A stretch of 64,000 nucleotides of DNA, taken from the NCBI GenBank assembly GCA_022822005.1, contig JAJECO010000079.1, positions 1 through 64,000 on the forward strand, given 5' to 3'. The notes below the pieces were generated by a model. It saw only the letters and a program-made list of their open reading frames with translations. It made no database searches and was not told the DNA's origin. This document shows, piece by piece, positions 51,675 to 63,409 of this stretch (the first letter of the stretch is position 1; each line of letters begins with the position of its first letter). This stretch comes from Candidatus Poribacteria bacterium. Its GTDB lineage: Bacteria > Poribacteria > WGA-4E > PCPOR2b. Position numbers and translations under genes: made by a program.

Positions 51675-54600
51675 ATGCAACCAAACTTGACTCGACTGAT
51701 TATTACCCTCGTTGTTTTGGCAGTAATTATTGGCGGGGGCGCCATCTTCGTGAAAATCTATCCTGACCTACTCTGGTTTGATATGATTGGCTATCTCGCG
51801 ATTTACAAAAAGGTGCTACTGACAAAAATAGGTTTGGGGGTTGTCGTTAGTGGCTTTTTTCTTGGTGTGACCCTCATTAACCTCTATCTTTTGTATCGTT
51901 TTACCCCACCTCGGCTGAGTCCGACACTCGTCGAATCTATCCCGCTTGAAGGCATGCCTGATTTTAATCTGCGGAAAGCCGTCTACGTTGTGCTAACACT
52001 CCTTGCGATAGGAGGGAGTATTGTGGGTGGTTATGCCTCGACAGACTACTGGGAGCAATTTCTCCGCTATTCAAATGCCAGTGATCTTTCGTTTCAATCT
52101 GCAACGTCGCTTAGTGCACCAGCAGATAGTGATGCGACAGAGATCCTTATTTCTGAGTTGGAGTACAGTGCGAAAGGATTTAGGGTAGGGGATGAGGTTA
52201 CCGTTGAAGAGGGGGATAGCAGTCATGCAGCACAGATCCGTACGATAAGTCCGGGGGCGGATGGGAATGTCAGAATTGGATTAAACCAAGGACTTAGCTT
52301 CGATGCCACCGGAGATGCTGTTTTGGTAGGAGGTGCCCGGGATCCAATTTTCAATAAGAATGTCAGTTACTATGTTTTTCGGATGCCTTTGGAACGCCTG
52401 ATCTGCGGCTACCTCTTTGGCCTATTCATGCTGGTCACCCTTTTTACGGGGGTGCTCTACTTTTTTCACGGGTTGCTCATTAACGAAAACAACCGTTTTG
52501 CACCGCCGCAGCGGGTTAAGACGCATCTGTTCATTCTGATTGGGTTGACGCTGCTGTTCCGTGCATGGAATTACCAGTTTGTGATGTATGACCTGCTCTA
52601 CACGACCAATGACGTCGTGCGGGGTGGTGGTGGCTACGCAGCGATACAGGCGCGGCTGCCGGTGTTATGGATACTGCTTGCGATCACTGTTATCTGCGCG
52701 TTGATTTTCTTCATTAGCATCTTTTTACGGCGCATCTCCTTCGCTGTTGGGGGTATCATTGTGCTTCTGCTTGTTGCCTTTATGGGACAAGCCTACCCTC
52801 GCATTGTTCAAAATCTGAAAGTTGAACCGAGCAAGCAGGAACTTGAGAGAACATATATAAATTACAACATCAGAGCAACACTACACGCGTATGATCTGGA
52901 GGATAGTACCGTGACTGAGACGGAGTACCCTTTGACGGGGGAATTGTCTTATGACAACATCACGGGACCAGAAAACGCGGCGGTGATTAATAGCATCCGG
53001 CTTTGGGATTGGCGCCCGTTGCGGCGGACTTTTAGGCAGCTGCAGGAGCTACGCTCACAATACGATTTTGCTGACGTAGATATTGACCGTTACCTGATGG
53101 AAAATGGCGAACCCCGACAGGTGATGCTTGCTGGACGTGAACTGAATATTAACGATCTGCCGCGTGAGGTGAGTCGGGATTGGTTTAAGCGCACCTACGT
53201 CTACACGCACGGGTATGGCGCGGTGCTAAGTCCTGTGGACGAAATTCTGGACGGGAAACCGAAGATGTACATTCGGGATATGGATCCAATTAATTACGAA
53301 CCTGAATGGACATATCGGTTTGACGAGAACCCCGGTCCCCGAATTTACTACGGCGAACGCACCAACCATTATGTCATTGTCCATCCAGACCGTTTGGAAA
53401 GCCTTGAATTCGATTATCCGGAGACATTTGGGCAAGATTTCGCGAAATACTCGTATCAAGGTGAGGGCGGTGTCAGTCTGTCTTCGTTCTTACGGAAATT
53501 TGCGTATATGCTGAAATTTAATAACGCGCTCAATTTCATCCTGCCCGGCGAAATACAATCAACAAGCCGTGTCCTTTATAACCGAAACATAAAGGAACGA
53601 GTCAGTCAAATCGCCCCATTCCTGAAATATGATGTTGATCCTTACCTTGTCCTCCATAATGGTCGCTTGATTTGGATGATCGATGCGTATACAACGACCG
53701 CACGTTATCCTTACTCCGCACCAATGCAAGACGCCATCCGTAGAACCATTGCAGCGCAGGGTGGCAGACGTGCTGCTGGACGTATCATGGGAGGCGAGCG
53801 ACCGTGGGGGAATTACATCCGTAACGCTGCTAAAGTCACAATCGATGCCTACGACGGTAGCGTGAATTTTTACCTGATGGAGCAGGAGCAGGATCCAATT
53901 GCGGAGTGTTACCGCCGTATCTTCCCGGATCTATTCAAACCGTTCGATGCGATGCCCGAAGACCTGAAGGCGCATATCCGATATCCGACCACTATGTTTC
54001 TCATTCAAGCGCAGGCGTATCAGGACTATCACATGAAAGATCCGATTACCTTCTATGCGAGTGAAGATCAGTGGCAGATTGGCGAGGAGCTTTACGATAA
54101 CACCGAGCGTCCCCGTCCCCCACAGGCACCGCAACCGCCAAGCCCATTTGCACGGACCCAACAACTGCCGGATACAGTTACGAATGTGCAGGAAGTTGCG
54201 CCTTACTACGTGGTTGTAAAAATACCGGGAGAGGAGCGCGCGGAATTTGTCCTGATGCTTCCCTTTACACCGAAAAACAAGCCGAACCTGACCGCTTGGA
54301 TTGCTGCGCGATGCGATTTGCCACAGTACGGACAACTGCTGGTCTATCGTTTCCCGAAGGGAAAACTCGCTCCCGGACCGATGCAGGTGGAAAACTTCAT
54401 CACGCAAGAGCCTGGCATTTCCCAGCAGATTAGTTTGTGGAATACGCAAGGTTCGCGCGTTCTGCGTGGGAATTTGCTCATCATCCCGATGAATGAGGCA
54501 ATTCTTTATGTTGAGCCGATTTACATCCAAGCAGAAAACGAAGAGTCTGCGATTCCTGAATTGCGGCGCGTTGTCGTTGGCTATAAGGAAAATGTCGCAT

Positions 54601-54863
54601 GGGGTGCCAGCCTTGATGAGGCATTGATTAACATGTTTGGCAAGCGGTTGGAGGTCGCATTGGCACAAGACAGCCCTGCTGCTGAAGCCACCGAAGCGGT
54701 GAGCGCAGCCGAGTCGCTATCTATTTCGACATTGGCAATACAGGCGCGAAAGCAATTTGAGGCGGCACAAGCGGCGCAACGCGCAGGGAATTGGGCGGAA
54801 TATGGACGTTATCTTAATCTGCTTGAAGCGACCTTGAAGCAGCTTGAGGCGGATGCCAGATAA
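51675..54863 (+). CDS. UPF0182 family membrane protein
   Basis: A 1062-residue protein matching UPF0182 (COG1615). It has about seven hydrophobic segments in the first 370 residues (LTRLIITLVVLAVIIGGGAI, YVVLTLLAIGGSIVGGYAST and others). A large soluble domain follows, with YTHGYGAVLSPV, GPRIYYGERTNHYVIVHP, RNIKERVSQIAPFLKYDVDP, WMIDAYTTTARYPYS and a closing acidic/Ala-rich coiled tail (EAAQAAQRAGNWAEYGRYLN). The function of the family is unknown. AAGGAAGG precedes the ATG; the 68-bp gap suggests co-transcription with the upstream fusion gene. An inserted segment in the loop after the fourth helix is typical. Confidence 0.88.
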   Translation: MQPNLTRLIITLVVLAVIIGGGAIFVKIYPDLLWFDMIGYLAIYKKVLLTKIGLGVVVSGFFLGVTLINLYLLYRFTPPRLSPTLVESIPLEGMPDFNLRKAVYVVLTLLAIGGSIVGGYASTDYWEQFLRYSNASDLSFQSATSLSAPADSDATEILISELEYSAKGFRVGDEVTVEEGDSSHAAQIRTISPGADGNVRIGLNQGLSFDATGDAVLVGGARDPIFNKNVSYYVFRMPLERLICGYLFGLFMLVTLFTGVLYFFHGLLINENNRFAPPQRVKTHLFILIGLTLLFRAWNYQFVMYDLLYTTNDVVRGGGGYAAIQARLPVLWILLAITVICALIFFISIFLRRISFAVGGIIVLLLVAFMGQAYPRIVQNLKVEPSKQELERTYINYNIRATLHAYDLEDSTVTETEYPLTGELSYDNITGPENAAVINSIRLWDWRPLRRTFRQLQELRSQYDFADVDIDRYLMENGEPRQVMLAGRELNINDLPREVSRDWFKRTYVYTHGYGAVLSPVDEILDGKPKMYIRDMDPINYEPEWTYRFDENPGPRIYYGERTNHYVIVHPDRLESLEFDYPETFGQDFAKYSYQGEGGVSLSSFLRKFAYMLKFNNALNFILPGEIQSTSRVLYNRNIKERVSQIAPFLKYDVDPYLVLHNGRLIWMIDAYTTTARYPYSAPMQDAIRRTIAAQGGRRAAGRIMGGERPWGNYIRNAAKVTIDAYDGSVNFYLMEQEQDPIAECYRRIFPDLFKPFDAMPEDLKAHIRYPTTMFLIQAQAYQDYHMKDPITFYASEDQWQIGEELYDNTERPRPPQAPQPPSPFARTQQLPDTVTNVQEVAPYYVVVKIPGEERAEFVLMLPFTPKNKPNLTAWIAARCDLPQYGQLLVYRFPKGKLAPGPMQVENFITQEPGISQQISLWNTQGSRVLRGNLLIIPMNEAILYVEPIYIQAENEESAIPELRRVVVGYKENVAWGASLDEALINMFGKRLEVALAQDSPAAEATEAVSAAESLSISTLAIQARKQFEAAQAAQRAGNWAEYGRYLNLLEATLKQLEADAR

Positions 54864-54971: not shown

Positions 54972-55016
54972 TACCGGGTCTGGGGGCAATAATGAACCAA
55001 AAAGGAGGTGAATTAA

Positions 55017-55262
55017 ATGGGGCTTGATTGGAAACCACGGCATCGGGATATGCTTATTGGTGGCTATTGGTGGTTGGCGCGAGTTACAGATAAGGCACGC
55101 GCTAAACTGAACGGTACTATCGGTGAGTACATCTACCCGTGACCGCAGGACAAAAGGTTCCTGGAGGAACACAAGTTAGATGCCGACGAGTTTGTTGAGA
55201 TGGTGAAAAGTAACCCATCAGACGACGATATGATCGCCGCGATGCAAAAACTGAATCGGTAG
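55017..55262 (+). CDS. DUF5069-like protein with in-frame TGA (candidate selenoprotein)
   Basis: AAAGGAGGTG precedes an ATG at 55017. The frame reads MGLDWKPRHRDMLIGGYWWL, ARVTDKARAKLNGTIGEYIYP, then TGA (55140-55142, codon 42), then PQDKRFLEEHKLDADEFVEM to TAG at 55260, 81 residues in all. The pattern (WLAR-DKARAKL-G-GEY, then Cys-Pro-x-Asp) is that of DUF5069, where, as I recall the family, a Cys follows Tyr-(Asn/Pro). The TGA falls at that Cys. Forty codons stay open after it, and a 5-bp hairpin starts 3 bases behind it. Either UGA encodes selenocysteine or a Cys codon has mutated to stop. Function of the family unknown. Confidence 0.6.
55143..55167 (+). promoter_or_regulatory. SECIS-like hairpin behind the in-frame TGA
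   Basis: CAGGA (55146-55150) pairs with TCCTG (55159-55163), enclosing the 8-base loop CAAAAGGT, which contains GG. Two further C-G pairs (55143-55144 with 55166-55167) may extend it past an internal loop. Position and loop G's fit a bacterial SECIS element broadly; this is a visual judgement. Confidence 0.4.
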
Positions 55263-55414: not shown

Positions 55415-57919
55415 ATGAAAAAGACAACCTTGTTTACTTTCATCCTATCGTTAGTCTCTGCATTATTTCTATCAAACAGCTTCGCACAGGAGAACCCGCA
55501 GTGGCAGCTGCCGGATGGTGCTACCGCACGTTTCGGCAAAGGGTGGATAGCTGGACTTGAATATTCGCCCGATGGAACCCGAATAGCGGTCGGCAGTTCT
55601 ATCGGTATTTGGCTGTACGATGCGGCAACCCTTCAAGAGATTGATTTGCTCACCGAGCACACGGAAACAGTCTCAGCCATCGCATATTCTCCGGATGGGA
55701 GCATCCTTGCCAGTGGGAGTTGGGATGATACTATTCGTCTATGGGATACCGCAACGGGTGAGAGCATCAACACCCTTACTGGGCATGAGGAAGGTATATT
55801 GAGCATTGCCTTTAGTCCGGATGGAAAAAACCTTGTCAGCGGGAGCTACGATGACACCGTGCGCTTATGGGATGTTGACACCGGTGAGAACACTCAAACG
55901 CTTACCAAACATGACGATTGGGTCTCCAGTGTTGCCTTCAATCAGGATGGGGACATGATTGCTAGTGGGAGTTGGGATCAAACCGTTCGTGTGTGGGATG
56001 TGGAGACGGGCGATAATCTCCATACCTTTATCGGACATACCTCTCTCGTCGAGACGGTTACTTTCGGTTGGGGAAGCACACTCGCCAGTGGAGATTTTGA
56101 CTCGATGATCCATCTGTGGAATGTTAAAACAGGCGAGAAAATCAGAACGCTCACCGAGCATACTTCGACTATCTACGAGGTCGTCTTTTCTCCAGATGGG
56201 GGCATATTGGCAAGCGCAAGTGAGGACGATACTGTTCGTCTGTGGAATGCTGCTACGGGTGAGACCGTTAAAACCTTTACCGAACATACAGCTGATGCCT
56301 ATAGGGTTGCGTTTAGCCCGGATGGCAATACTCTCGCAAGTGGGAGTGGGGATGCGACCGTCCGTCTGTGGGATGTTGATACCGGCGAAAACATCGGAAG
56401 CCTTACCGGGCATGAGAGTAGCGTTTTGAGTGTCGCTTTCGGCCCGGGGAACCGCACACTCGTTGGTCGGAGTTGGGATCAAACAATTCGCGTCTGGAAT
56501 ACCGAAACGGGAGAGCGGCAGCACTTCCTTGTGGGACATACGGACGATGTGGATATCGTTGTTTTCAGTCCGGATGGCCGCACAATCGCCAGCGGCAGTC
56601 AGGACAACACTGTTCGCCTGTGGGACGCTGAGACTGGAAAACATTTGAAAACTCTCGTCGGGCATTGGGCTTATATCATAACCATTGCTTTCAGTCCCGA
56701 TGGCACACTCCTCGCTAGCGGCAGTGAGGACGATACTGTTCGTTTGTGGGATGCCGAGACCGGGGAGCGTCTGGCACGCCTTCGGGGACATTTTGCTGGT
56801 GTCGAGACACTCGCTTTCAATCACGATGGCACAATGTTCGCAAGTGGGAGTCGAGATGCGGTCATTACTATATGGGATGTTGCCACCAGGGATTGGCTGC
56901 ATTTTCTCTTTGGTCATCGTGGACATGTTCTCACCGTTGCTTTCAATCCGGATAGTACAATCCTTGCAAGTGGCGGGTGGGACAATACCATTCGCTTGTG
57001 GGATGTCGCCACCGGTGAGGAGATGACGCTTATTCAGGCGAGCGAGTATGGGGTCGAAAGTGCTATTGAGAGCGTTGCTTTCAGTCCCGATGGAAAGACT
57101 CTCGCAGCCGGAGGATGGGGTAATGCGGTTGGCTTCTGGGATGTTACAACAGGTGAGCATATCATAACTTTTACCGGGCATACCTCTCGGGTTGAAAGCG
57201 TTGCCTTTAACTCCTATGGCACAGTCCTAGCAAGTGGAAGTCGGGATGGCACGGTGTTGTTATGGGATATTCCACTGCCTCCAGTCTTCGGGGATGTCAA
57301 CGGGAATAGAATCGTGAATATCTTGGATTTAGCACTGGTTGGATTGCATTTGGGACAGACTGGGGAAAATGCGGCCGATGTCAATGAGGATGGCATTGTG
57401 GACATTACTGACCTGCTTCAGGTCGCCGGCGCGATTGGAAACACTGCTGCCGCACCCGCCGGACGTTCTTTAGCACGAGCGCACCTCACCCCCGACGATG
57501 TTGAGGGGTGGATCGCCCAAGCACAGGGATTAGATCTGACGGAGGTCCGCTCGAAAAGAGGAATTCTTTTCCTTGAACAACTCCTCGTAGCGTTGGCACC
57601 AGAAGAAACAGTACTCTTGCCGAATTATCCCAATCCGTTCAATCCAGAGACGTGGATTCCCTATCAACTTGCCAATGACGCCGATGTAACACTGACGGTT
57701 TACGACACAAAAGGCATACCGGTGCGCCAATTCGAACTGGGGCATCAGTCCGCAGGCTTCTACACCACTCGGACGAAAGCCGCTTATTGGGACGGACGTA
57801 ATGAAAACGGCGAATCGGTTGCAAGCGGGGTCTATTTCTATCAACTCCAAGTGTCTTCATCCCGATCTATCGGGGCAGGAGATTATACTGACTTACGGCG
57901 GATGGTAATTCTCAAATAA
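55415..57919 (+). CDS. Secreted WD40-repeat protein with dockerin and NPFNPETWIPYQL tail
   Basis: An 834-residue exported protein with a signal peptide (FILSLVSALFLSNSFAQE). Fourteen WD40 units (for example SPDGSILASGSWDDTIRLWD) fill residues 35-620, enough for two 7-bladed propellers. A dockerin-type pair of Ca-binding loops follows (DVNGNRIVNILDLALVGLHL and DVNEDGIVDITDLLQVAGAI, from about 626). The C-terminal 100 residues are a beta-sandwich-like tail with NYPNPFNPETWIPYQL, resembling FlgD-Ig or secretion-tail domains. WD40 propellers bind proteins, and here they would lie outside the cytosol. A tandem paralogue is at 58050. A 24-base insertion near the 3' end is unique to this copy. Confidence 0.85.
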   Translation: MKKTTLFTFILSLVSALFLSNSFAQENPQWQLPDGATARFGKGWIAGLEYSPDGTRIAVGSSIGIWLYDAATLQEIDLLTEHTETVSAIAYSPDGSILASGSWDDTIRLWDTATGESINTLTGHEEGILSIAFSPDGKNLVSGSYDDTVRLWDVDTGENTQTLTKHDDWVSSVAFNQDGDMIASGSWDQTVRVWDVETGDNLHTFIGHTSLVETVTFGWGSTLASGDFDSMIHLWNVKTGEKIRTLTEHTSTIYEVVFSPDGGILASASEDDTVRLWNAATGETVKTFTEHTADAYRVAFSPDGNTLASGSGDATVRLWDVDTGENIGSLTGHESSVLSVAFGPGNRTLVGRSWDQTIRVWNTETGERQHFLVGHTDDVDIVVFSPDGRTIASGSQDNTVRLWDAETGKHLKTLVGHWAYIITIAFSPDGTLLASGSEDDTVRLWDAETGERLARLRGHFAGVETLAFNHDGTMFASGSRDAVITIWDVATRDWLHFLFGHRGHVLTVAFNPDSTILASGGWDNTIRLWDVATGEEMTLIQASEYGVESAIESVAFSPDGKTLAAGGWGNAVGFWDVTTGEHIITFTGHTSRVESVAFNSYGTVLASGSRDGTVLLWDIPLPPVFGDVNGNRIVNILDLALVGLHLGQTGENAADVNEDGIVDITDLLQVAGAIGNTAAAPAGRSLARAHLTPDDVEGWIAQAQGLDLTEVRSKRGILFLEQLLVALAPEETVLLPNYPNPFNPETWIPYQLANDADVTLTVYDTKGIPVRQFELGHQSAGFYTTRTKAAYWDGRNENGESVASGVYFYQLQVSSSRSIGAGDYTDLRRMVILK
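57852..57875. repeat. In-frame palindromic mini-insertion in the WD40 gene
   Basis: Relative to the paralogue at 58050, this gene has about 24 extra bases carrying TCCCGATCTATCGGGG (57860-57875), adding roughly VSSSRSIG between QLQ and AGDY. The same palindrome type, TCCCGAT-NN-ATCGGGG, occurs between genes at 2689 and 11339. Confidence 0.6.
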
Positions 57920-58049
57920 GAGCACTAATTGGCGCGAGAATCCGGGGTTGGTTAGAGAACTCGGATTCTGGATCTAAGCCACCTTTCGCTCATTTGCCCT
58001 GTATTTGGTAATCTGTAAAACTGATAATCAAAAAGGAGAATTAATCTCA

Positions 58050-60584
58050 ATGAAAAGGACAGTGTTTTTTAGCCTTATTTTATTATTACTTTCTACTCTA
58101 TTTTTATCAGATAGCTTCGCCCAAAATAATCCGCAGTGGCAGTTACCCGAAGATTCGATTGCGCGATACGGTAAAGGGTGGATAGCTGGGCTTCAGTATT
58201 CGCCCAACGGCGATCGACTCGCAGTTGCTACCGCCATCGGTATTTGGCTCTACGATACGGAAACCCTTCAAGAGGTTGACCTGCTTACCGGGCAAACGGC
58301 AATATATGAAAATGCGACGTATTCGCCATCTTCTATGGCGTATTCGCCGGATGGGAGTATACTTGCCAGTGGGGGTTGGGACAGAGCTATCCGTCTGTGG
58401 GATACCGCTACAGGCGAGGACATCAAAATCCTTACCGGGCATAGGAGTGGTGTTCGGAGTCTCGCTTTTAGCCCGGACGGAAAGATTCTCGCGAGTGGAA
58501 GTTACGACGATACTGTTCGCCTGTGGGATGTTGACACAGGTGAAACCATCCACACCCTTGCCGAACATACGGATCGGGTCAACAACGTTGCTTTTAGCCC
58601 AAATGGGGATATAGTCGCTAGTGGAGGTTGGGATCAAACCGTTCGTTTGTGGGATGTGGCTACGGGTCAACTCCTCAGAACTATCGCCGGGCATACGTCT
58701 CTTGTCCGGGCGCTTGCTTTTAGCCCGGATGGAGATATGGTTGCCAGTGGAGACTACGACGCAAGGATCCGTTTGTGGGATGTTGACACCGGCGACGAAA
58801 TCAGAACACTCATCGGTCATACTTCTATTATTTACGATCTCACTTTTTCGGATGAGGGTATCCTAGCGAGTGCAAGTGAGGATGACACTGTTCGCCTGTG
58901 GGATGTTGAGGCCGGTGTTACCATTCACGCTCTGACCGAGCATACGGCTGATGTCATTCAGGTTGCATTTAGCCCGGATGGACGCACACTCGCAAGTGGG
59001 GCATGGGATGCGACCTTTCGCCTATGGGACGTTGATACAGGTGAGCACATTGAAGCTGTTACTGGGTTCGCGGACCTTGTTTTGAATGTTGCGTTCAGTC
59101 CGGAGGGACGCGTACTTGTCGGTCGGAGTTGGGACAGCACCATCCGTCTGTGGAACACCGAAACCGGAGAGCGCGAGCACTTCCTCTTCGGTCATACGGA
59201 CGATGTGGACGTAGTTGCTTTTAGCCCGGAGGGACGTACACTTGCCAGTGGCAGCAATGACGATACGGTCCGTTTGTGGGACGTTGACACCGGCGCCCAC
59301 CTGAAAACCCTCGTGGGGCATAGATCTTATATTATAAGCGTTGCTTTCAGTCCCGATGGTAGCGTGGTAGCGAGCGGAAGCGAGGACGATGATGTCCGCT
59401 TGTGGGATGTCGCTACCGGGAAGCGTTTGAGAACCCTCCGAGGACATAGGACCGGCGTCGAGAGCCTCGCTTTTACTTCTGATGGAAAGATCCTTGCAAG
59501 TGGGAGTCGAGATAGTACTGTTCGTCTGTGGGATGTCGACACCGGAGAAACGCTACACGTGCTTGGAGGACATTACCTTCATGTCCTGACCGTTGCTTTC
59601 AGTCCCGATGACAAGATCCTCGCGAGTGCCGGGATAGATACTGTCATTCGTCTGTGGGATGTCGATACCGGTGAGATCGTGCTAGAAATTGATAGGGAGG
59701 TTCATGGTGTGGAAAGCGTTGCTTTCAGTCCCGATGGAAAAATTCTTGCAGTTGGGGCGTGGGATGATACGATGAGTTTGTGGGATGCTACCACCGGTGA
59801 GTTATTGAAAACCCTCATCGGTCATACGAATAGTGTTGAGAGCGTTGATTTCAGTTCTGATGGTACCATGCTCGCCAGTGGGAGTTGGGACGGCACGGTG
59901 CTTCTGTGGGATGTTGCACTACCACCGCCTCCCGAGGAGCCACCACCGCCTCCTGTCGTCGAAGAACCCCTGCCGGTTGAGGACGTAAACGGGAATGGAG
60001 TGGTCAACATCTTGGATTTAGCACTGGTTGGATTACGCTTGGGACAAACAGGGGAAAATAGTGCTGACGTTAATGGGGATGGCGTTGTGGACATTGCGGA
60101 TTTGATTCAGGTCGCTGGGGCTATCGGAAACGCTACCGCGGCACCTGCCGCTCATTCTTTGGCACTGACTAACCTCACCCCCGACGATGTCGAGGGGTGG
60201 ATCGCCCAAGCACAAGGATTGGATCTGACGGGCATAAACACACAAAGAGGAATTCTCTTCCTTGAACAACTTCTTGTAGCATTAGTTCCCAAAGAGACAG
60301 TACTTTTGCCGAACTATCCCAACCCGTTCAACCCGGAGACGTGGATTCCGTACCAACTCGCTCAAGATGCGGATGTGACCCTTACGGTTTATGATATGAA
60401 AGGTACGGCGGTGCGCCACTTCGACTTGGGGTATCAGTCCGCAGGGTACTACACGGGTCGGACGAAAGCCGTTTACTGGGACGGACGTAATGAAATCGGT
60501 GAATCGGTCGCAAGCGGAATTTATTTTTATCAACTCGACGCAGGCGATTATACTGACCTACGACGCATGGTAATTGTCAAATAA
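58050..60584 (+). CDS. Secreted WD40-repeat protein with dockerin and tail (tandem paralogue)
   Basis: The ATG at 58050 starts the signal peptide MKRTVFFSLILLLLSTLFLS; AAAAGGAG lies upstream, and the open frame extends 15 codons earlier. The 844-residue product repeats the layout of the gene at 55415: fourteen WD40 units, a Pro/Glu linker (about 628-645) that the other copy lacks, dockerin loops (DVNGNGVVNILDLALVGLRL and DVNGDGVVDIADLIQVAGAI), then NYPNPFNPETWIPYQL and a closing DLRRMVIVK. It arose by tandem duplication. A hairpin, AGAATCCG and CGGATTCT (57937-57969), sits between the two genes. Confidence 0.85.
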   Translation: MKRTVFFSLILLLLSTLFLSDSFAQNNPQWQLPEDSIARYGKGWIAGLQYSPNGDRLAVATAIGIWLYDTETLQEVDLLTGQTAIYENATYSPSSMAYSPDGSILASGGWDRAIRLWDTATGEDIKILTGHRSGVRSLAFSPDGKILASGSYDDTVRLWDVDTGETIHTLAEHTDRVNNVAFSPNGDIVASGGWDQTVRLWDVATGQLLRTIAGHTSLVRALAFSPDGDMVASGDYDARIRLWDVDTGDEIRTLIGHTSIIYDLTFSDEGILASASEDDTVRLWDVEAGVTIHALTEHTADVIQVAFSPDGRTLASGAWDATFRLWDVDTGEHIEAVTGFADLVLNVAFSPEGRVLVGRSWDSTIRLWNTETGEREHFLFGHTDDVDVVAFSPEGRTLASGSNDDTVRLWDVDTGAHLKTLVGHRSYIISVAFSPDGSVVASGSEDDDVRLWDVATGKRLRTLRGHRTGVESLAFTSDGKILASGSRDSTVRLWDVDTGETLHVLGGHYLHVLTVAFSPDDKILASAGIDTVIRLWDVDTGEIVLEIDREVHGVESVAFSPDGKILAVGAWDDTMSLWDATTGELLKTLIGHTNSVESVDFSSDGTMLASGSWDGTVLLWDVALPPPPEEPPPPPVVEEPLPVEDVNGNGVVNILDLALVGLRLGQTGENSADVNGDGVVDIADLIQVAGAIGNATAAPAAHSLALTNLTPDDVEGWIAQAQGLDLTGINTQRGILFLEQLLVALVPKETVLLPNYPNPFNPETWIPYQLAQDADVTLTVYDMKGTAVRHFDLGYQSAGYYTGRTKAVYWDGRNEIGESVASGIYFYQLDAGDYTDLRRMVIVK

Positions 60585-60623
60585 GCGGGCGAAAGAGAAC
60601 CCGAGTTTTTCTAACCTAAACGG

Positions 60624-60652
60624 TTGAATAATCAACAAAATGGGATTAAAAT
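60624..60652 (+). promoter_or_regulatory. Putative promoter of the gene at 60695
   Basis: TTGAAT (60624-60629), 17 bases and TAAAAT (60647-60652), about 40 bp before the ATG. A short CGGG...CCCG hairpin with TTTTT (60587-60611) precedes it and may end the WD40 transcript. Confidence 0.5.
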
Positions 60653-60694
60653 ATCTTTCACCTAAAATTGTACAACCCATTAACGGAGGTTTTT

Positions 60695-63409
60695 ATGATC
60701 AGTCAGATTAAACCCAGTTTTTTGTTTTATATGCTTACGTTGTCTCTATGCCTCAATCCCTTTTTCTTAAATAACACCGATGCACAAACCGATAATGACT
60801 CAACTCCTGCCGCCCCTGAATTCACCTACACTTATGAGAGTATTGATGTTCCCGGTGTAGATTTTTTAGCGTTGACGGCGAGTAGCGACTTTGAGGATTA
60901 CGCCGGCTACACCCGGAGCCCCGATGGTGAAAAAACAGTCGGATTTACACTCATTGACGGTGTTTTTACGACTTATGATTTCCCCGGTTCACAGAACACT
61001 TATTTCTATGCGTTCGGCAATAATGGGTTAGCCGCCGGGCACTACGAGGATAGTGATGGCCTGTACCACGGTGTTATCTTAGAAAATGGCGAACTGCGGC
61101 AATATGATTTTCCGGGCGCGGTCCAAACGGAGATATATGGGTTCAGTGATTCGACGGAGGTGCTGACGGGCAGTTTTATAGATGATTCCGGCGTTCGTCG
61201 TGGATTTTCAGGGGACATAATCGTTGAAGTGCCTGATGCAACAGCAACATACGCCGATTTTGTGAACGCGAGTGGCGCTATCACAGGAAGTTACATAAGT
61301 GCTGATGGTCTATATTATCCATACGTGCGCACCCCGAATGGAACATTTGTATTTCACGACTATCTGGACTCTTCAACTCTGGAGTACTTTTTTGTGCACG
61401 GTATCACTGATACAAGGATTATCATTGCGCGAGCTAAAGCGATAGGTGATATTCCGCGCTCCTATGTCGGCACATCCCAGCAAGGACTATCTGAATTACA
61501 ATTTCCGGGCAGTGTTAGCACAGAGGGTTGGAATATCAATCAAGATGGGTCTGCCGTCGGGTATTACGACTCAGGGGATGGACGTAGACACGGATTTATA
61601 GCCAGACCGACTGAGGAAACTGCTGAAAAATTTAGAGATATAGCTTATCCCCCACCGCCTGAGTTCAATTTCACCTATGAGAGTATTGATATACCCGGTG
61701 TAGATTTTTTAGCGTTGACAGCGAGTAGCGACTTTGAGGATTACGCCGGCTACGCCCGGACCCCCGACGGTGAAAAAGAGGTTGCCTTTACGCTCATCGA
61801 TGGTGTCTTTACGACCTACGATTTCCCGGGTTCACAGAACACCTATTTTTATGCGTTCGGCAATGATGGGACAGCTGCAGGGCACTACCAAGATAGCGAT
61901 GGGCTGTACCACGGTGTCATCTTAGAAAATGGCGAACTGCGGCAATATGATTTTCCGGGTGCCGTCCAAACGGAGATATATGGGTTCAGTGATTCGACGG
62001 GTGTGCTGACGGGTAATTTTATAGATGATTCCGGCGTTCGTCGTGGATTTTCAGGGGACATAATCGTTGAAGTGCCTGATGCAATAGCAACATACGCCGA
62101 TTTTGTGAACTCACAAGGTCTTATCGTAGGCAGCTACATAGATGCTGACGGTTTATTTCACGCATACGCGCTCTCCTCCTCTGGTAGATTTATACTTCTT
62201 GACTATCTTGAACCATCAACTCTGGAATACTTTTTTCTGCACGGCATTAGCGAGGGCGAGGGAAGGAGTGTATTTATAAGTGCCCGATCAAAATTTGTGG
62301 ATGACATTCCACGCTCCTATGTCGGCTCATATCTGTACGGGCTACATGAATTGTGGTTTCCGGGTAGCGTTAGCACGGAGGGCTGGAACATCAATAAGGA
62401 TGGCTCTGTCGTCGGGCACTATGACTCGGCGGATGGGCGGAGGCATGGGTTTATCGCGAAACTCGGCACTAAGGCGGAGAGCGACTATTTTGGCAACGCC
62501 TACCATGTCACACTGGCTAAAGGTCTGAACATGATTTCTGTGCCATTGGCACCACCGACACCGCTGAACGCTAAGACACTTGCCGGTCTGACAGCGGCGA
62601 CAACTGTCATCGCATTCGATGAGACCAATCAACAATTCGTTGGTTGGACACCAAGCGCACCGGACGACGGGTTTCCAATCGAAGGTGGGAAAGGCTATAT
62701 TGTCAATGTCCCACAGGCTCGCCAATTTGCCTACGTCGGTTCCCAATGGACAAACCAAACGGAGAACGCTGCAGCGGCACCTCCTATATCCGTGGATACA
62801 TTCCAAGAACAGGAAACGTGGGCGTTCGTTGTAAGCGGGCACTTGGAAGGGCAAGCTGCATTTGACGGCTACCAAGTCACAGTTCGTAACCTCAGAACAG
62901 ATGGCGTGATAACTGCCTCAGTGCAAGGCGATTACTTCGCTGCGGCAACAGCTGACTTGGCGCGACGGAGCGTAGTCCAAGCTGGAGACGTAATTGAAGT
63001 ACGGGTTACCGGTCCGAGTGGAAACGTTGAATCAGACGCCTTCACTTCTATAGTAACACCTGAGGATTTGGCAAACGCGGTTCTGTCTATCAAGCTTGAT
63101 CGCATTGGCCAACCGAAGTTGACGCAGTTGTTGCAGAACTTCCCGAACCCGTTCAATCCCGAAACTTGGATTCCATACCAGCTTGAAAAAGCGGCTGATG
63201 TCACGCTCCATATTTATGATACCTCGGGTGGCATTGTCCGAACGCTGGATCTCGGTTTCAAGCAACAAGGGTTCTATATGACGCGTTCTACAGCAGCGTA
63301 TTGGGATGGACGTAACAATATCGGTGAGCAGGTTGCCTCTGGGGTTTACTTCTACAGTTTGAATACCCCTGACTTTTCGGGGACACGGAAGATGCTCATA
63401 TTAAAGTGA
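60695..63409 (+). CDS. Secreted protein with duplicated extracellular repeat domain and NPFNPETWIPYQL tail
   Basis: The ATG at 60695 has GGAGG upstream; the open frame starts 9 codons earlier. The 904-residue product has a signal peptide (FLFYMLTLSLCLNPFFLNNTDAQ), then two tandem copies of a 281-residue domain. Each copy opens FTYESID-PGVDFLALTASSD and contains repeated motifs such as TYDFPGSQNTYFYAFGN and EIYGFSDST, like the 40-50-residue extracellular repeats of the HAF family. Next come a Gly/Ser-binding-like region with LAKGLNMISVPLAPP, and a tail with NFPNPFNPETWIPYQL and FSGTRKMLILK. Likely surface or secreted; function unknown. Confidence 0.78.
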   Translation: MISQIKPSFLFYMLTLSLCLNPFFLNNTDAQTDNDSTPAAPEFTYTYESIDVPGVDFLALTASSDFEDYAGYTRSPDGEKTVGFTLIDGVFTTYDFPGSQNTYFYAFGNNGLAAGHYEDSDGLYHGVILENGELRQYDFPGAVQTEIYGFSDSTEVLTGSFIDDSGVRRGFSGDIIVEVPDATATYADFVNASGAITGSYISADGLYYPYVRTPNGTFVFHDYLDSSTLEYFFVHGITDTRIIIARAKAIGDIPRSYVGTSQQGLSELQFPGSVSTEGWNINQDGSAVGYYDSGDGRRHGFIARPTEETAEKFRDIAYPPPPEFNFTYESIDIPGVDFLALTASSDFEDYAGYARTPDGEKEVAFTLIDGVFTTYDFPGSQNTYFYAFGNDGTAAGHYQDSDGLYHGVILENGELRQYDFPGAVQTEIYGFSDSTGVLTGNFIDDSGVRRGFSGDIIVEVPDAIATYADFVNSQGLIVGSYIDADGLFHAYALSSSGRFILLDYLEPSTLEYFFLHGISEGEGRSVFISARSKFVDDIPRSYVGSYLYGLHELWFPGSVSTEGWNINKDGSVVGHYDSADGRRHGFIAKLGTKAESDYFGNAYHVTLAKGLNMISVPLAPPTPLNAKTLAGLTAATTVIAFDETNQQFVGWTPSAPDDGFPIEGGKGYIVNVPQARQFAYVGSQWTNQTENAAAAPPISVDTFQEQETWAFVVSGHLEGQAAFDGYQVTVRNLRTDGVITASVQGDYFAAATADLARRSVVQAGDVIEVRVTGPSGNVESDAFTSIVTPEDLANAVLSIKLDRIGQPKLTQLLQNFPNPFNPETWIPYQLEKAADVTLHIYDTSGGIVRTLDLGFKQQGFYMTRSTAAYWDGRNNIGEQVASGVYFYSLNTPDFSGTRKMLILK

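What the first reader, a model, noticed from the sequence alone, without database searches (positions are those of the whole stretch)
55017..55262. Candidate new selenoprotein: in-frame TGA at a conserved Cys of a DUF5069-like protein
Seen: a strong ribosome binding site, 41 sense codons, TGA, then 39 more sense codons to TAG, with protein-like sequence on both sides. A CAGGA/TCCTG hairpin with GG in its loop begins within 3-4 bases after the TGA. From memory of the family, the TGA replaces a Cys in the Tyr-x-Cys-Pro-x-Asp motif. I do not recall DUF5069 among listed bacterial selenoprotein families. The rival explanation is a recent Cys-to-stop mutation.
Basis: partly seen in the sequence, partly recalled or inferred. 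Interest (0 to 1): 0.82.

Follow-up and report, generated by a model that had tools for sequence, protein, structure and literature searches.

The report
Poribacterial DUF5069 protein containing selenocysteine
A tiny bacterial protein of unknown function reads a 'stop' codon as the selenium amino acid selenocysteine; this is conserved across 72 genomes of one phylum and recurs in a second, so it is a real, apparently unlisted family of selenium proteins.

Summary
The finding holds. The ORF at 55017-55262 of this Poribacteria genome is a DUF5069 protein (Pfam E=6e-17) with an in-frame TGA at the family's conserved Cys. All 54 poribacterial loci from GTDB contigs, and 72 of the 78 phylum genomes that carry the gene, have TGA there; the other six (one sister family) have TGC/TGT. 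Codons after the TGA are under purifying selection (median dN/dS 0.10; upstream 0.04). The genome encodes tRNA-Sec(UCA), SelB, SelA and a SelD that itself carries Sec. TGA also serves as an ordinary stop codon.

The real SECIS is GUUCC-UGGA-GGAAC, 55157-55170, 19 nt after the UGA. Its codons 48-51 show no synonymous variation in 64 sequences, and one relative carries a compensatory G-C to A-U change. The best SECIS-like stem is 5-7 bp in 65/65 TGA genes and at most 3 bp in nine Cys genes.

Four Chloroflexota genomes also have TGA at this codon, probably a second Cys/Sec exchange. DUF5069 is absent from a May 2026 catalogue of 119 prokaryotic selenoprotein families and from NCBIfam, and no searched paper names it. 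It is a new selenoprotein family, probably a single-Sec redox enzyme; the reaction is unknown.

The parts
55001..55011 (+). Shine-Dalgarno AAAGGAGGTGA, 8 nt between GGAGG and the ATG
   Evidence: sequence; a purine-rich SD-like motif precedes the start codon in all 65 distinct TGA orthologues by a simple motif search
55017..55262 (+). DUF5069-Sec selenoprotein gene, 81 residues with U42, stop TAG
   Evidence: PF16798 E=6.4e-17, 62.4 bits against a cut-off of 27; 54/54 poribacterial contig loci colinear; dN/dS 0.041 upstream and 0.100 downstream of the TGA
55140..55142 (+). Sec-encoding TGA (codon 42), aligned with the conserved Cys of the Y-x-Y-P-C-P-x-D motif
   Evidence: TGA in 72 Poribacteria genomes, Cys in 6; Cys in most Chloroflexota short homologues and in PDB 3omd
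55157..55170 (+). SECIS core: stem GTTCC (55157-55161) with GGAAC (55166-55170), loop TGGA (55162-55165); 19 nt lie between the TGA and the loop
   Evidence: predicted from the alignment by RNAalifold; no synonymous variation at codons 48-51 and third position of codon 47 always G; compensatory changes at three pairs
   Evidence: 23/49 break the third pair, 5/49 each of the first two, no compensatory change
51675..54863 (+). conserved upstream neighbour, UPF0182 membrane protein (not part of the selenoprotein)
   Evidence: PF03699 E=3e-238; its family is upstream of the gene in 53 of the 58 loci examined

Best explanation
The gene encodes an 81-residue DUF5069 selenoprotein. During translation, SelB with GTP and Sec-tRNA-Sec binds the GUUCC-UGGA-GGAAC hairpin, whose loop lies 19 nt downstream of UGA42, and delivers selenocysteine there instead of letting termination occur. 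Sec-tRNA-Sec is made by SelA with selenophosphate from the genome's own SelD, itself a selenoprotein. These steps are inferred from homology and from conserved sequence; none was measured. The folded protein presents Sec42 just before a helix, in a motif with invariant Arg, Asp, Lys and Tyr residues. No Cys occurs in any of 65 distinct Sec orthologues, so it most likely acts as a single-selenol catalyst (peroxide or disulfide reduction, or another selenolate-nucleophile reaction) whose selenenyl intermediate is resolved by an outside thiol. That last step is inference only.
For: Position: TGA at codon 42 in 54/54 poribacterial contig loci and 72 phylum genomes; TGC/TGT in six sister-family genomes. 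Selection: median dN/dS 0.04 before and 0.10 after the TGA with synonymous sites near saturation. SECIS: codons 48-51 (TTC CTG GAG GAA) identical in 64/64 while nearly all other degenerate conserved codons vary; permutation P of such a run 0.0016; RNAalifold finds exactly this stem; compensatory changes G-C to A-U, U-A to A-U, A-U to G-C; stem 5-7 bp in 65/65 TGA genes and at most 3 bp in 9 Cys genes, against 1.2% by synonymous resampling. It fits the published bSECIS rules on loop size, loop G, upper stem and spacing (PMC13188914). Machinery: tRNA-Sec with TCA anticodon, SelB and SelA side by side, plus Sec-SelD with a similar hairpin. TGA ends 15 of 35 long ORFs, so no global reassignment. 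Second phylum: TGA at the same codon in four Chloroflexota genomes. Fold: model pLDDT 84 matches 3omd, TM 0.85.
Against: No direct evidence of selenium incorporation or of the protein. The bare hairpin is weak in this genome (-5.6 kcal/mol), short of the -7.5 kcal/mol limit quoted for bSECIS searches, and 31 of 200 shuffles fold as well. Two Poribacteria with the TGA gene lack a detectable tRNA-Sec: G016, 80% complete, and G037, whose SelB match stops at profile position 357. Chloroflexota G541 also lacks one. The chemical function is inferred.
Confidence: 0.95

Rival explanations
1. A recent Cys (TGC/TGT) to stop mutation, leaving a 41-residue fragment and a decaying tail.
For: A single-base change from TGC or TGT gives TGA.
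Against: TGA is fixed in 72 genomes spanning several families, and downstream codons remain under purifying selection.
Confidence: 0.01
2. A sequencing or assembly error in this one genome.
For: The genome is a draft assembly of 97 contigs.
Against: The same TGA occurs in independent assemblies, including chromosome-level ones such as OY282444.1, OX638316.1 and OX639973.1.
Confidence: 0.002
3. TGA is reassigned genome-wide (for example to Cys or Trp) or is read through by a near-cognate tRNA without selenium.
For: The TGA replaces a Cys codon.
Against: TGA ends 15 of 35 long ORFs in the window; a conserved SECIS and full Sec machinery exist; Cys orthologues lack the hairpin.
Confidence: 0.02
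4. Programmed termination: the main product is the 41-residue N-terminal peptide, and the conserved hairpin regulates termination or translation in answer to selenium supply.
For: Strong Shine-Dalgarno and constrained first half; Sec insertion in bacteria is inefficient and depends on selenium supply (general knowledge).
Against: The C-terminal half is constrained as protein and completes the same fold as in Cys homologues and 3omd.
Confidence: 0.02

Closest known systems
DUF5069 (PF16798), structure 3omd from Leptospirillum rubarum
   Same: Fold and motif: model TM 0.85 over 73 columns, 46% identity; 3omd reads GEYTYNCPLD against GEYIYPUPQD here.
   Different: Most known members have Cys here. 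The poribacterial form has Sec, is 81 residues against 145 in 3omd, and matches only profile positions 4-75 of 133.
Catalogued prokaryotic selenoprotein families (119 in PMC13188914)
   Same: UGA at a conserved Cys, downstream bSECIS, SelA/SelB/SelC/SelD; most have a single Sec.
   Different: No entry for DUF5069/PF16798. Most characterised ones have a thioredoxin-like fold with a redox motif; here there is no Cys besides the Sec and the PDB fold search finds no credible match other than 3omd.
Sec-containing SelD of the same genome (G000:C66)
   Same: In-frame TGA followed by a hairpin with its loop 17 nt away (AGUU, G then U) against 19 nt here (UGGA, G then G).
   Different: SelD is a long-known selenoprotein family; DUF5069 is not.

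Membership tests
Bacterial selenoprotein | In-frame UGA aligned with a conserved Cys in homologues | tested here: met
Bacterial selenoprotein | UGA-containing homologues in other organisms, with purifying selection downstream | tested here: met
   72 Poribacteria and four Chloroflexota genomes; downstream dN/dS 0.10 in Poribacteria
Bacterial selenoprotein | SelA, SelB, tRNA-Sec, SelD in the genome | tested here: met
   SelA 602 bits, SelB 369 bits, SelD 370 bits, tRNA-Sec 76 bits with TCA anticodon
Bacterial selenoprotein | Selenium physically present at residue 42 | not testable with these tools
   needs 75Se labelling or mass spectrometry
[quoted passage not shown]
   loop UGGA, stem 5 bp here (7 bp in many relatives), 19 nt
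bSECIS element (rules quoted in PMC13188914) | MFE at or below -7.5 kcal/mol | tested here: inconclusive
   isolated hairpin -5.6 in the window, -6.4 in L006, -7.7 in L141; a longer window fold (-15) uses other pairs
bSECIS element (rules quoted in PMC13188914) | Conservation and compensation beyond protein coding | tested here: met
   codons 48-51 invariant in 64/64; three pairs with changes on both sides
DUF5069 (PF16798) | Profile match above the curated cut-off | tested here: met
   62.4 bits against 27, positions 4-75 of 133
DUF5069 (PF16798) | Fold of the solved member 3omd | tested here: met
   predicted model TMq 0.85, rmsd 1.0 over 73 columns
Thioredoxin-like selenoproteins | Thioredoxin-like fold with CxxU/UxxC | tested here: not met
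   mainly helical model, no thioredoxin-fold hit; no Cys in 65/65 Sec forms

The most novel reading that the evidence does not exclude
DUF5069-Sec is a new enzyme type: a single-selenol catalyst on a helical non-thioredoxin fold, reached separately in Poribacteria and Chloroflexota by Cys/Sec exchange, and one of the reasons these lineages keep the costly selenocysteine system.
Probability: 0.4. Interest if true: 0.75.

Novelty: new member of a known kind. Interest (0 to 1): 0.62.

Why it matters
It adds a family of unknown function to the list of proteins whose key residue is selenocysteine. Sec at a conserved Cys is a strong hint that this Cys is catalytic, which makes an unannotated domain with a 2010 orphan structure (3omd) directly testable. 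[quoted passage not shown] the passage read there names no selenoprotein to account for it. In practice the gene is easily annotated as a 41-residue fragment or missed in poribacterial genomes.

Tried and rejected
Whole-genome TGA reassignment: rejected. Gene-neighbourhood function: UPF0182 upstream and chorismate mutase/prephenate dehydratase (pheA) and queG downstream are widely conserved, but in the window's genus a WD40 gene takes the downstream place, and in Chloroflexota the neighbours are a DUF2344 gene and an unassigned ORF of about 343 aa; no functional link was drawn. NCBIfam gave nothing; the PDB fold search gave only 3omd. Rfam at gathering thresholds reports only tRNAs in the window. 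The SECIS of the Chloroflexota forms (GCTC-GGT-GAGC, loop 21 nt after UGA, identical but for one G-U in three sequences) is suggestive only, because several Cys homologues can form stems of similar length there. Literature searches for DUF5069 and PF16798 returned no paper.

Full report
What is in the sequence. The ORF is as described: SD AAAGGAGGTGA, ATG 55017, TGA 55140-55142, TAG 55260-55262. With the TGA read as a residue, the protein matches DUF5069 (PF16798) at 62.4 bits, E = 6.4e-17.

Relatives. A scan of 84,980 GTDB species genomes with the protein gave 54 poribacterial loci (67-98% identical) and three Chloroflexota loci. All 54 poribacterial loci have TGA at codon 42; the three Chloroflexota loci have TGC or TGT. 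In a whole-genome search of 85 genomes of the phylum, 72 have the gene with one in-frame TGA and six have it without a stop. This set overlaps the first one in part. Those six, all of one sister family, carry TGC (5) or TGT (1) at exactly this codon. The remaining genomes have only remote paralogues or none.

Selection. Between TGA-bearing genes, median dN/dS (NG86) is 0.041 for codons 1-41 and 0.100 for codons 43-80. Within the genus, differences after the TGA are mostly synonymous between close pairs; for the most distant one about half are non-synonymous. The downstream half is therefore very probably translated and functional.

Machinery. The genome has tRNA-Sec (76 bits; ARAGORN anticodon TCA), SelB and SelA side by side on one contig, and SelD. 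SelD itself has an in-frame TGA, so it is a Sec-SelD. TGA is also used as an ordinary stop: 15 of 35 long ORFs in the window end with it.

SECIS. RNAalifold on those 49 sequences picks another stem, GUUCC with GGAAC around loop UGGA, at 55157-55170. Codons 48-51 (TTC CTG GAG GAA) are identical in all 64 ungapped TGA genes, and codon 47 always ends in G; of 43 conserved degenerate codons only codon 4 is otherwise invariant. L145, with a 3-nt insertion before the stem, keeps it through a G-C to A-U change; L141/L142 and other relatives show further two-sided changes at the outer pairs. Synonymous resampling of the window's codons gives a stem of 5 bp or more with a G-loop at a permitted distance in 1.2% of cases; the 65 TGA genes all have 5-7 bp, nine Cys genes have at most 3. 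Loop size, loop G and 19-nt spacing fit the published bSECIS model (PMC13188914), and SelD's hairpin in the same genome has the same layout. The isolated hairpin energy is modest (-5.6 kcal/mol).

Second phylum. Scanning 301 Chloroflexota genomes with the DUF5069 profile, then one class, found TGA at the same codon in G384, G487 and G541, and in G548 where the contig ends just after it. G384 and G487 have tRNA-Sec, G541 does not show one; G548 was not tested. In a tree with the Sec/Cys column masked, poribacterial and Chloroflexota short forms separate with strong support, and Sec forms occur on both sides. This means at least two Cys/Sec changes, or one old Sec with several losses; the short alignment (83 columns) does not settle which.

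Protein. The AlphaFold2 model (pLDDT 84) has Sec42 immediately before helix 43-51 and matches PDB 3omd, a DUF5069 protein of unknown function, with TM 0.85; nothing else matches credibly. Invariant residues across Sec and Cys forms include R22, D25, K26, Y38, Y40, residue 42 and D45. None of 65 distinct poribacterial Sec forms contains any Cys, so no internal partner thiol exists. I infer a one-selenol redox or nucleophilic catalyst that needs an outside thiol; this was not tested.

Novelty. The catalogue of 119 prokaryotic selenoprotein families/subfamilies of May 2026 has no DUF5069/PF16798 (PMC13188914). The nine new families of deep-Sep do not include it by name (PMC12013277). NCBIfam 20.0 has no model that hits it. 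No paper in the searched open library mentions DUF5069 or PF16798. Subscription papers, preprints, supplementary tables and individual GenBank annotations were not searched.

Noticed in passing
L088:1468-2529 (G000:C66): The genome's SelD is itself a selenoprotein (CGU motif, in-frame TGA) with a CAGUCC-AGUU-GGACUG hairpin, its loop 17 nt after the UGA.
   Followed up: partly
L058 (G000:C1:134159-134983): Two-domain DUF5069 protein of 289 aa in the same genome without the motif Cys (GEYLYGDDSGLD, GEYRYGEDSGQD); longer versions of about 430 aa occur in relatives.
   Followed up: partly
window 55415-63409: Large WD40-repeat genes follow the DUF5069 gene; the first two carry a dockerin-like DVNG.G.V(D/N)I segment and a C-terminal PNYPNPFNPETWIPYQL sorting-type motif. 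In this genus they stand where pheA and queG follow the DUF5069 gene in other Poribacteria.
   Followed up: no
L240-L242: Chloroflexota Sec-DUF5069 genes lie beside an unassigned ORF of about 343 aa (no Pfam match in the two tested); in L240 a DUF2344 gene precedes it.
   Followed up: partly
G016, G037, G541: Genomes with the TGA-bearing gene but no detectable tRNA-Sec, probably assembly gaps.
   Followed up: no
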